Of a stretch of DNA of 64,000 nucleotides, positions 12,481 through 36,032 are shown in pieces. Source of the DNA: Erysipelothrix aquatica (lineage in GTDB: Bacteria; Bacillota_I; Bacilli_A; Erysipelotrichales; Erysipelotrichaceae). The stretch spans positions 1 to 64,000 of the forward strand of contig NZ_WTSY02000002.1 in NCBI RefSeq assembly GCF_009828775.2. The letters run 5' to 3'. The notes under the pieces were generated by a model, which worked only from the letters and a program-made list of their open reading frames with translations, had not been told where the DNA came from and did not search any database. Within the stretch, counting starts at the first letter, position 1, and each line of letters starts with the position of its first letter. The position numbers and the translations under genes were made by a program.

Positions 12481-12564
12481 GCACCAGTGGCGGAACGGTA
12501 GACGCGCACGCTTGAGGGGCGTGTAGAGCAATCTGTGGAAGTTCAAATCTTCTCTGGTGCACCA
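12481..12564 (+). tRNA. tRNA-Leu (anticodon GAG)
   Basis: 84 nt with the long variable arm of class II tRNAs. Acceptor GCACCAG/CTGGTGC, anticodon loop TTGAGGG giving GAG, and encoded CCA. It is the only plus-strand tRNA in the window. Confidence 0.95.
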
Positions 12565-14071: not shown

Positions 14072-14105
14072 AAAAAAGAAATAGCAGATTTAAGCTATTT
14101 CTTTT
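14072..14105 (-). terminator. Terminator-like hairpin between coaD and tRNA-Arg(CCU)
   Basis: AAAGAAATAGC/GCTATTTCTTT stem followed by T residues directly against the 5' end of the tRNA. It overlaps the last codons of coaD. No separate tRNA promoter is obvious, so partial read-through and processing are possible. Confidence 0.65.
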
Positions 14106-14577
14106 GAGCATAGCGCTCGATGAGTCGATCCGCTACGTTGCACGGAACGAGTGATTTTAAATCGCCACCAAAGCGTGCAATTTCTCGAGCAACTGACGAC
14201 GAAATATATGAATAATGGGGATCTGCCACCAAAAATAGTGTTTCGATTTTAGGATTTAAGACTCGGTTCGTTGCAGCGTGTTGCAACTCATACTCGTAAT
14301 CCATAACCGCACGAATACCACGAATTAACAGTGTACAGTTTTCTTTAACTGCATAGTCCACGGTCAGACCATCACCAATTTTAACTTCAACATTGGATAG
14401 ATGTTTAACACTTTCTTGCGCTAACTCTAAACGTTCCGCCATCGAAAATGTTCCTTGCTTGCTGTCGTTACCCATAATTGCAACAACAACTTCTTCAAAC
14501 ATTCGAGAACAACGTTCAATTAAGTCAATGTGACCTAAAGTGATTGGATCAAATGACCCAGGATACATAACTCTCAT
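14095..14577 (-). CDS. coaD: Phosphopantetheine adenylyltransferase
   Basis: Fourth step of coenzyme A synthesis: ATP plus 4'-phosphopantetheine to dephospho-CoA. 160 residues with the nucleotidyltransferase motif GSFDPITLGH (about 7-16) and the ISSS segment (YISSSVAREIA) near residue 126. The start at 14577 has AGAGG 7 bp upstream; the ATG at 14598 would add seven unrelated residues. TATAAT at 14597-14602 is a possible -10 element. Confidence 0.95.
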   Translation of the reverse strand: MRVMYPGSFDPITLGHIDLIERCSRMFEEVVVAIMGNDSKQGTFSMAERLELAQESVKHLSNVEVKIGDGLTVDYAVKENCTLLIRGIRAVMDYEYELQHAATNRVLNPKIETLFLVADPHYSYISSSVAREIARFGGDLKSLVPCNVADRLIERYAQKK

Positions 14578-14612
14578 ATGAATACCTCTCGTTAACATTA
14601 TACGCTATGACA

Positions 14613-14763
14613 AACAAAAAACACACCCTACCGTGTGTTTTTATAAAGGAGACGATTCGTTGTTACTGATGGAGGAAATATAAATGTATTTCATTAGTTG
14701 AGGAAATAGTGTCAACGAATCTTCTTGAGGACAAGTATTATATAAGATAGTTTGGCTATCTAT
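14613..14763 (-). ncRNA. Candidate regulatory small RNA with four anti-Shine-Dalgarno motifs
   Basis: A transcription unit of about 150 nt with no protein-coding content. It starts below a near-consensus promoter (14770-14797) and ends at a strong intrinsic terminator. Read on the minus strand it can form a 5' hairpin (GATAG/CTATC), a small hairpin CUUG-UCCU-CAAG that shows UCCU in its loop (14724-14735), and a 9-bp stem (14713-14721 with 14654-14662) enclosing a second hairpin (14675-14692). Four pyrimidine-rich motifs complementary to ribosome binding sites occur: UCCU, UUUCCUC, UUUCCUCC and UCUCCUUU. This resembles RsaE/RoxS and csRNA-type sRNAs of Firmicutes in design, but no known family is recognised by sequence. 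Confidence 0.6.
14616..14642 (-). terminator. Terminator of the candidate small RNA
   Basis: Hairpin AACACAC/GTGTGTT followed by a T run on the minus strand, between the sRNA body and the coaD promoter. Confidence 0.8.
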
Positions 14764-14769
14764 GTTTAC

Positions 14770-14797
14770 ATTATACATTGAAAAATGTAAAAGTCAA
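14770..14797 (-). promoter_or_regulatory. Strong promoter of the candidate small RNA
   Basis: TTGACT, spacer of about 16-17 bp, TATAAT on the minus strand, 70-odd bp upstream of the first large stem and with no gene start behind it. The flavodoxin gene ends at 14846, so this is an independent promoter. Confidence 0.75.
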
Positions 14798-14845
14798 CGG
14801 ACTTTCACTATTTTTACACTATTTTTACATTATTTATGAAACAAA

Positions 14846-15268
14846 TTACATTTTGAAGTAAGACGTTACTTTTTCCTTCACATTTGCGAGTTGTTCATCG
14901 TTAGGTTCCCATTGGATTTGATAGCGATCAAGTACCTCTGCACCTGAATCAATCATCTCCTGATTCCAGCTGACCATCCATTCGCCATCACCCCAGTCGT
15001 ATGAACCAAAAAGAACGACTTTTTTTCCAGCAACATATGGGAGTAAATCGTCTAAAAATGGTCTAAACTCATATTCTTCAACAGCTTCACCGGACATCGA
15101 AGGACATCCCAAAAAGAATATATCAGAATCCTTTACGTCATCAGCAGTGACATCACTGACGTAATTACTTTCGCATTGCATTCCTAAGTCTTCAATTGCT
15201 TCTTGTATCGCTTCAGCGATAATTTGTGTGTTACCAGACCCTGTCCAGTATACGATTGATGGTTTCAT
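14846..15268 (-). CDS. Flavodoxin
   Basis: Short-chain FMN electron carrier of 140 residues. The phosphate-binding loop TGSGNT (9-14) is at the N-terminus. SYDWGDGEW near 92-100 is typical of the isoalloxazine loop. CAAGGAG precedes the ATG. A terminator separates it from the PTS IIB gene upstream. Its electron donor and acceptor cannot be told from the neighbours. Confidence 0.9.
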   Translation of the reverse strand: MKPSIVYWTGSGNTQIIAEAIQEAIEDLGMQCESNYVSDVTADDVKDSDIFFLGCPSMSGEAVEEYEFRPFLDDLLPYVAGKKVVLFGSYDWGDGEWMVSWNQEMIDSGAEVLDRYQIQWEPNDEQLANVKEKVTSYFKM

Positions 15269-15721: not shown

Positions 15722-16174
15722 TTAACGGAAATTTTTCCCAGCAAATTTTTGTTCAAGGGCCTTCATGTCTGTAAGTGGCATTCGTAGTTTGAAAGGTTGT
15801 CCCTTTAATAAGAAAGATAAGCGGCCTTTTTCATACTTAACACGTGTAATGTCCTTAACGTAAAATGAGTGTTCGAGTATAAAAATCACTTTTTTACCCC
15901 ATGCCACAACGCGACGTGTATGATAAAACGTCACAATGAGCATAATGAAACCATAAAAGGTCAAGAATGAAACATTAGCTTTCAAGTCTGGATAAATAAT
16001 AAAGCCAATATTCAGCACACCCACAACGACAATTTCGATCCAACTTCTTACGTCAAACTTCAATTTCAACGTATCATCAATACGTTTTCCGCGATTGTAT
16101 CGCATCATTTCAAATCCGTAGAGCGCTATGATTACAAATCGACAAATCATAACGACAATTTCACTCATGTTCAT
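15722..16174 (-). CDS. Membrane protein of unknown function, 150 residues
   Basis: Not recognised. The N-terminal two thirds contain three or four hydrophobic segments (about 4-20, 46-62, 68-85 and possibly 90-105). The C-terminal 45 residues are a hydrophilic, basic beta-rich stretch that should lie in the cytosol. GAGGAAAG precedes the ATG. It lies between the PTS IIB and IIA genes with terminator and promoter on either side, so it is probably its own unit. Confidence 0.7.
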   Translation of the reverse strand: MNMSEIVVMICRFVIIALYGFEMMRYNRGKRIDDTLKLKFDVRSWIEIVVVGVLNIGFIIYPDLKANVSFLTFYGFIMLIVTFYHTRRVVAWGKKVIFILEHSFYVKDITRVKYEKGRLSFLLKGQPFKLRMPLTDMKALEQKFAGKNFR

Positions 16175-16235
16175 TTTCTTTCCTCACTTTTGTACATTGT
16201 ATCATGTAGTCATATATTTTAGGCACTTTCTTAAC

Positions 16236-16260
16236 AAAAAACCACCCTAGGGTGGTTTTT
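16236..16260 (-). terminator. Terminator of the PTS IIA gene
   Basis: AAAAACCACC/GGTGGTTTTT hairpin directly after the IIA stop. Confidence 0.8.
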
Positions 16261-16261
16261 A

Positions 16262-16570
16262 TTACTGAATTCGTTTGTGAATATCAATAAGTTCAGCTGC
16301 AATAATTTTTAATACTTCTGCACTCATCATTTGATCTTCCGCATGGATTAACAATAAGTTGATTGCTGTATTTCCTTCTTGAGCTTCTTGTTGAATTAAT
16401 TGAGCGTGTACACGGTGTCCTTCAACGAATTGTTCTTCACCTTCTGCCATCAATTGTTCTGCACGATCGAAATCGCCTTCTTTTGCAGCTGCAATTGCTT
16501 CAATGAAGCATGAGCGTGCTGATCCGTTGAATGAGATCATTTGAAAACTTAGTAGTTCAATACCTTCCAT
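16262..16570 (-). CDS. PTS lactose/cellobiose-family IIA component
   Basis: Accepts phosphate from HPr and passes it to IIB. 102 residues, all-helical. His76 in LLIHAEDQMM is the phosphorylated histidine of the LacF/ChbA family. An extended -10 (TGTTATAAT) lies upstream and a terminator directly follows the stop, so it is transcribed alone. It probably serves the IIB component at 15329 and a IIC encoded elsewhere. Confidence 0.93.
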   Translation of the reverse strand: MEGIELLSFQMISFNGSARSCFIEAIAAAKEGDFDRAEQLMAEGEEQFVEGHRVHAQLIQQEAQEGNTAINLLLIHAEDQMMSAEVLKIIAAELIDIHKRIQ

Positions 16571-22614: not shown

Positions 22615-22690
22615 TGGTGGAGCTTAGCGGGATCGAACCGCTGACCTCCTGCGTGCAAGGCAGGCGCTCTCCCAGCTGAGCTAAAGCCCC
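22615..22690 (-). tRNA. tRNA-Ala (anticodon UGC), copy 1
   Basis: 76 nt; anticodon loop CTTGCAC giving UGC; encoded CCA. Second gene of the Ile-Ala array. Identical in sequence to the other three tRNA-Ala genes here. Confidence 0.96.
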
Positions 22691-22716
22691 ATATATTATG
22701 TTATTACTTAAAGAAA

Positions 22717-22793
<77 letters not shown>

Positions 22794-34573: not shown

Positions 34574-34649
34574 TGGTGGAGCTTAGCGGGATCGAACCGC
34601 TGACCTCCTGCGTGCAAGGCAGGCGCTCTCCCAGCTGAGCTAAAGCCCC
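34574..34649 (-). tRNA. tRNA-Ala (anticodon UGC), copy 2
   Basis: 76 nt, identical to copy 1. Third gene of array 2 (Ile-Ala-Ala). Confidence 0.96.
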
Positions 34650-34690
34650 ATAATTTGGTTACAGATACTGTAACCATTCAATTGTAAATT

Positions 34691-34766
34691 TGGTGGAGCT
34701 TAGCGGGATCGAACCGCTGACCTCCTGCGTGCAAGGCAGGCGCTCTCCCAGCTGAGCTAAAGCCCC
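34691..34766 (-). tRNA. tRNA-Ala (anticodon UGC), copy 3
   Basis: 76 nt, identical to copy 2, from which it is separated by 41 bp; a local tandem duplication. Confidence 0.96.
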
Positions 34767-34789
34767 AAATATTTAGCAATCATTAGAAA

Positions 34790-34866
<77 letters not shown>

Positions 34867-35853: not shown

Positions 35854-35929
35854 TGGTGGAGCTTAGCGGGATCGAACCGCTGACCTCCTGCGTGCAAGGC
35901 AGGCGCTCTCCCAGCTGAGCTAAAGCCCC
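35854..35929 (-). tRNA. tRNA-Ala (anticodon UGC), copy 4
   Basis: 76 nt, identical to the other copies. The spacer to tRNA-Ile is nearly identical to that of array 1. Confidence 0.96.
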
Positions 35930-35955
35930 ATATATTTTGTTATTATTTAAAGAAA

Positions 35956-36032
<77 letters not shown>

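What the first reader, a model, noticed from the sequence alone, without database searches (positions are those of the whole stretch)
14612..14800. Candidate small RNA carrying four anti-Shine-Dalgarno motifs
A near-consensus promoter (TTGACT/TATAAT) is followed by about 150 nt without a reading frame and a strong terminator. Four CU-rich motifs (UCCU, UUUCCUC, UUUCCUCC, UCUCCUUU) are placed in loops or single-stranded linkers of a predicted fold. One is the exact tetraloop of CUUG-UCCU-CAAG. This design fits a translation-repressing sRNA that binds many ribosome binding sites.
Basis: partly seen in the sequence, partly recalled or inferred. Interest (0 to 1): 0.7.

Follow-up and report, generated by a model that had tools for sequence, protein, structure and literature searches.

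The report
Conserved Erysipelothrix CU-motif small RNA
A ~150-nucleotide non-coding RNA gene, kept in the same place in every sufficiently complete Erysipelothrix genome examined and absent from the Rfam catalogue of known RNA families, displays several pyrimidine-rich loops that match ribosome-binding sites, so it is most likely a regulator that blocks translation of a set of messenger RNAs.

Summary
The organism is an Erysipelothrix (CoaD 99% identical to E. anatis). A covariance model finds the RNA once per genome in 12 of 13 genus members, E 1e-13 to 1e-25, at the flavodoxin-[RNA]-coaD position where inspected. The 13th genome is incomplete and gave no CoaD hit. There is no credible hit elsewhere in the family or order, and none in Rfam. 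The structure is supported: the long-range stem keeps pairing although its sequence is rewritten between species (native arms -13.6 kcal/mol on average, swapped -6.6; 2 of 40,320 permutations as good). CU motifs 2 and 3 stay in the loop it closes. Motif 1 is conserved as sequence (ACUUGUCC), but the exact CUUG-UCCU-CAAG hairpin is not; motif 4 occurs in five genomes. It is not a coaD leader: coaD has its own -10 box after the terminator. Best reading: a trans-acting sRNA that blocks Shine-Dalgarno sequences, a new family working like LhrC, csRNAs and RoxS but related to none by the tests run. Targets are unknown: a two-genome prediction did no better than motif-preserving shuffles. A TGTAAA half-site cluster upstream hints at response-regulator control (weak).

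The parts
14802..14829 (-). Upstream cluster of TGTAAA/TGAAAG half-sites in 11-nt steps (TGTAAA-AATAG-TGTAAA-AATAG-TGAAAG), possible response-regulator site
   Evidence: 28 TGTWAH half-sites in the 75 nt upstream of -35 over 12 orthologs against 7.4 expected from mononucleotide shuffles; the strict 11-nt direct repeat is not conserved; orthologs are not independent
14770..14797 (-). Promoter of the small RNA: TTGACT, 16-bp spacer, TATAAT
   Evidence: 11 of 12 matches; conserved in 12 orthologs, spacer 16 (18 in one) and 6-nt discriminator
14612..14763 (-). Small RNA gene, inferred start A14763 (ATAGAT...), about 150 nt
   Evidence: Model R1 hit 14614-14763 minus, 114.3 bits, E 9e-21; same RNA in 12 of 13 genus genomes
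14745..14761 (-). 5' hairpin P1 (AGATAG-CCAAA-CUAUCU)
   Evidence: Minimum-energy fold of each ortholog
14724..14735 (-). CU motif 1, within ACUUGUCCUC, here in a CUUG-UCCU-CAAG hairpin
   Evidence: ACUUGUCC/AUGUCC sequence kept in all but one of the ten orthologs aligned (absent in G006); exact hairpin found only here and in the near-identical E. anatis copy
14713..14721 (-). Long-range stem P3, 5' arm GAUUCGUUG
14700..14706 (-). CU motif 2, UUUCCUC, in the loop closed by P3
   Evidence: Present in all orthologs (ACUCCUUA in G010); unpaired probability 0.89 here
14671..14678 (-). CU motif 3, UUUCCUCC, in the loop closed by P3
   Evidence: Present in all orthologs (UUUCCUUCC in G006); complement GGAGGA in 13% of G002 start regions, about 0.03% of CDS windows, start calling biased to SD
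14654..14662 (-). Long-range stem P3, 3' arm CAACGAAUC
   Evidence: Arm-swap test
14645..14652 (-). CU motif 4, UCUCCUUU, linker before the terminator
   Evidence: Only in G000, G004, G003, G012, G010; paired in G012
14612..14642 (-). Intrinsic terminator and T-run
   Evidence: 6 of 12 consensus pairs with compensatory changes
14597..14602 (-). -10 box (TATAAT) of coaD, downstream of the terminator
   Evidence: TATAAT or TATACT 25-40 nt before the coaD ATG in all 12 orthologs
14095..14577 (-). coaD (phosphopantetheine adenylyltransferase), downstream neighbour
   Evidence: gene name from own reading of the translation
14846..15268 (-). Flavodoxin-like gene, upstream neighbour on the same strand
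   Evidence: same neighbour seen upstream in orthologs whose flanks were read; function name from own reading of the translation

Best explanation
An independent, non-coding, trans-acting small RNA gene of the genus Erysipelothrix. Transcribed from its own promoter and ended by an intrinsic terminator, the ~150-nt RNA folds into a 5' hairpin, a long-range stem that closes a large open loop, and the terminator hairpin. [quoted passage not shown] Shown: gene unit, conservation, fold, exposed motifs, complementarity to start regions. Inferred: transcription, translational repression, target identity, induction by a response regulator binding TGTAAA-type half-sites.
For: Genus-wide single-copy conservation by covariance model (12 of 13) at the flavodoxin-coaD position; conserved promoter geometry; terminator with compensatory changes; P3 arms rewritten between species yet pairing with their own partner (2 of 40,320 permutations as good); motifs 2 and 3 in every ortholog with unpaired probability 0.68-0.99, motif 1 in all but one with 0.76-0.99; the 6-mers complementary to start regions coincide with the CU motifs and their flanks; no conserved ORF; separate coaD -10 box after the terminator. 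The same design in LhrC (three redundant CU-rich sites shown to bind target mRNA, PMC4132741) and in csRNAs (anti-SD in unpaired regions, PMC3091779).
Against: No transcript evidence. Target prediction over 197 ortholog pairs of two genomes gave no more shared top targets than flank-shuffled motif-bearing RNAs (1-3 against 3.0 +/- 1.5; energy correlation 0.22 against 0.33), though only 620 kb of the second genome were available and accessibility was ignored. CU motifs could also serve protein or sponge binding.
Confidence: 0.75

Rival explanations
1. The RNA acts mainly by binding a protein or another RNA through its repeated CU motifs (a sponge), not by direct mRNA repression.
For: Repeated short motifs in loops are also the design of protein-titrating RNAs (PMC4132741 makes this comparison for LhrC); no conserved mRNA target set was found.
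Against: The conserved cores match the Shine-Dalgarno complement specifically; the motifs differ in flanks and in spacing, as pairing sites do.
Confidence: 0.13
2. The structure is a cis-acting leader/attenuator of coaD, the terminator being a regulated switch.
For: It lies directly upstream of coaD on the same strand with a terminator between, in every ortholog with a flank read.
Against: coaD has its own TATAAT/TATACT 25-40 nt before its ATG in all 12 orthologs; no competing antiterminator stem was seen in the predicted folds; in G002, G005, G009 more than 100 nt of extra sequence separate terminator and coaD, and in G007 an IS element interrupts them.
Confidence: 0.05
3. A small protein gene or an unexpressed relic rather than a functional RNA.
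For: Short ORFs exist (17-24 codons).
Against: ORFs and their products differ between species and lack conservation; P3 covariation and motif conservation require selection on RNA.
Confidence: 0.03

Closest known systems
LhrC1-5 family (Listeria monocytogenes)
   Same: [quoted passage not shown] controlled by a two-component system (LisRK) (PMC4132741)
   Different: LhrC has five copies; this RNA has one per genome. No Rfam match to any family. Motif is UUUCCUC(C) rather than CUCCC...UUUU; two motifs sit in a loop closed by a long-range stem. Some orthologs (G002, G005, G009) do carry CUCCC in the terminator loop, this one does not.
csRNAs of streptococci (CiaRH regulon)
   Same: Anti-SD stretches in unpaired regions between hairpins; response-regulator direct repeat near the promoter (PMC3091779)
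   Different: No TTTAAG-N5-TTTAAG upstream; no conserved anti-start CAU (here CAU precedes the CCUCC of motif 3 by 8 nt, but not in the other diverged orthologs read); single copy; different fold
RoxS/RsaE (Bacillus, Staphylococcus)
   Same: C-rich regions pairing with SD sequences of mRNAs; two-component control (PMC8216469)
   Different: No Rfam match at E up to 10; motifs UUCCUC rather than CCC-rich; different genomic place and fold (RoxS details partly from own knowledge)

Membership tests
LhrC family | Match to an Rfam covariance model of a described sRNA | tested here: not met
   cmscan of the locus up to E 10 and of eight orthologs up to E 5: no bacterial sRNA family over the RNA at a meaningful score; presence of the LhrC model in the library not separately checked
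LhrC family | Several genomic copies | tested here: not met
   One significant hit per genome
LhrC family | CU-rich sites shown to bind mRNA SD regions | not testable with these tools
   Sites present and exposed; binding needs experiment
csRNA (CiaR regulon) | TTTAAG-N5-TTTAAG direct repeat upstream of the promoter | tested here: not met
   Absent in the 75 nt upstream of -35 printed for 12 orthologs
csRNA (CiaR regulon) | Anti-SD sequence in an unpaired region | tested here: met
csRNA (CiaR regulon) | Anti-start codon (CAU) with the anti-SD | tested here: inconclusive
   CAU 8 nt before CCUCC of motif 3 in this genome and E. anatis; not in the other orthologs on reading the alignment
RoxS/RsaE | Match to the described family by sequence and structure | tested here: not met
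   No Rfam match; presence of that model in the library not separately checked
coaD leader/attenuator | coaD transcribed only through the element | tested here: not met
   Conserved -10 box between terminator and coaD in all orthologs; transcript mapping not available

The most novel reading that the evidence does not exclude
The RNA is a broad translation brake: its two to four interchangeable anti-Shine-Dalgarno sites let one molecule engage many start regions at once, lowering translation generally under envelope or redox stress sensed by a response regulator, rather than repressing a few chosen genes.
Probability: 0.12. Interest if true: 0.75.

Novelty: new member of a known kind. Interest (0 to 1): 0.5.

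Why it matters
No regulatory small RNA of Erysipelothrix turned up in the paper library searched, and Rfam has no family here. This is a clear, single-copy, genus-wide candidate in an animal pathogen genus, with defined motifs that make its mechanism directly testable. It also adds an apparently independent case of firmicutes using multi-site CU-rich RNAs against Shine-Dalgarno sequences.

Tried and rejected
WalR-type box TGTWAH-N5-TGTWAH: one match in the window, exactly upstream of this promoter, but 1.1 expected by chance and the strict 11-nt repeat is not conserved in orthologs, so kept only as a lead. RNAalifold on the MAFFT alignment recovered only the terminator because P3 arms are misaligned; replaced by the arm-swap test. 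Homologs outside the genus: best family/order hit E 0.0097 in 195 and 294 genomes searched, what chance gives; in more distant coaD loci no such element is seen upstream and the model finds nothing there. Possible second copy at 16128-16262 (+) scored 22.5 bits: it covers a short hairpin that looks like an ordinary bidirectional terminator, judged chance. Coding potential: rejected.

Full report
Observation. The finding is real and lies on the minus strand. TTGACT (14797-14792), a 16-bp spacer and TATAAT (14775-14770) precede a ~150-nt region ending in a 10-pair terminator (14642-14617) with a T-run. The RNA folds at -30.2 kcal/mol, z = -3.3, none of 200 shuffles as stable. Promoter-like matches of the lower quality accepted by the scan are as frequent as in shuffles (6 against 5.4), but this one is by far the best (11 of 12), and terminator-like sites exceed shuffles (5 against 1.3). 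The stronger evidence is conservation.

Organism and homologs. CoaD next door is 99% identical to Erysipelothrix anatis, and relatives found include E. inopinata. A direct sequence search and then a covariance model (R1, ten orthologs) find the RNA once per genome in 12 of 13 genomes of the genus with 82-136 bits (E 1e-13 to 1e-25); the 13th is 88% complete and gave no CoaD hit either. Over 195 family and 294 order genomes there is no credible hit outside the genus (best E 0.0097). Where flanks were read, the order is flavodoxin-like gene, RNA, coaD. More distant coaD loci show no such element. Rfam has no match for the window element or for eight orthologs.

Anatomy. Promoter geometry is fixed: TTGAC, spacer 16 (18 in one), TATAAT, 6 nt, then invariant ATAGAT, which places the start at about A14763. 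Each ortholog's own minimum-energy fold contains a 5' hairpin P1, a long-range stem P3 and the terminator. P3 is the key test: its arms were defined by the flanking motifs, not by folding, and pairing energies were computed for native and swapped arms of eight diverged species. Native pairs average -13.6, swapped pairs -6.6 kcal/mol, and only 2 of 40,320 assignments (the native one included) do as well. The terminator has compensatory changes in 6 of 12 pairs. Between P3's arms lie motif 2 (UUUCCUC) and motif 3 (UUUCCUCC), kept in all species (with variants in G010 and G006); motif 1 (ACUUGUCC) lies in the linker before P3 and is missing only in G006. Their mean unpaired probabilities are 0.68-0.99 against 0.37-0.54 for the RNAs as a whole. 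Some species have CUCCC or UUCCUC in the terminator loop instead (sequences).

Anti-Shine-Dalgarno character. Among all 6-mers of the RNA, those whose complements are strongly enriched in the 20 nt before 1,624 start codons of genome G002 fall at the CU motifs and their flanks (for example GGAGGA in 13% of start regions, about 0.03% of coding windows). Because starts were chosen partly by Shine-Dalgarno match, the size of the enrichment is inflated, not its place.

Mechanism. An independent unit (own promoter, terminator, coaD -10 box after the terminator in all orthologs) without a conserved ORF, with exposed conserved anti-SD motifs in a covarying scaffold, is best explained as a trans-acting sRNA that occludes ribosome-binding sites. 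This follows how LhrC (PMC4132741), csRNAs (PMC3091779) and RoxS (PMC8216469) work; transcription, repression and targets are inferred. A target screen over 197 ortholog pairs did not find a conserved target set beyond flank-shuffled controls; ribosomal protein genes, a PyrR-like gene and a phosphate-transporter-like gene score high but cannot be called targets.

Regulation (lead only). The 75 nt upstream of -35 hold 28 TGTWAH half-sites over 12 orthologs against 7.4 in mononucleotide shuffles, many about 11 nt upstream of -35. This resembles sites of OmpR-family response regulators (own knowledge); but the spacing varies and the orthologs are related, so no regulator is assigned.

Comparison and novelty. 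It works like the CU-rich firmicute sRNAs, but is not a member of any by the tests run: no Rfam match, single copy, no CiaR repeat, different scaffold. It is a new family of a known kind, restricted to Erysipelothrix. No earlier report of a regulatory sRNA in this genus was found in the paper library searched, which does not hold most subscription journals.

Noticed in passing
L058:1501-2940 (genome G007): In one species an element that looks like an IS3-family transposon (own reading of the sequence) is inserted inside the terminator hairpin of this small RNA; promoter and RNA body remain, the terminator's 3' half lies beyond the element.
   Followed up: partly
window 22615-22793, 34574-34866, 35854-36032: Three tRNA-Ile(GAU)/tRNA-Ala(UGC) clusters stand without rRNA genes beside them (Rfam finds no rRNA in the window); two small rhodanese-like genes sit between the last two.
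   Followed up: partly
window 12481-12564: ARAGORN calls a tRNA-Leu(GAG) on the + strand that Rfam's tRNA model does not list at gathering threshold.
   Followed up: no
window 14802-14829: Direct repeat TGTAAAAATAG/TGTAAAAATAG/TGAAAG directly upstream of the small RNA promoter, holding the only TGTWAH-N5-TGTWAH match in the window.
   Followed up: partly
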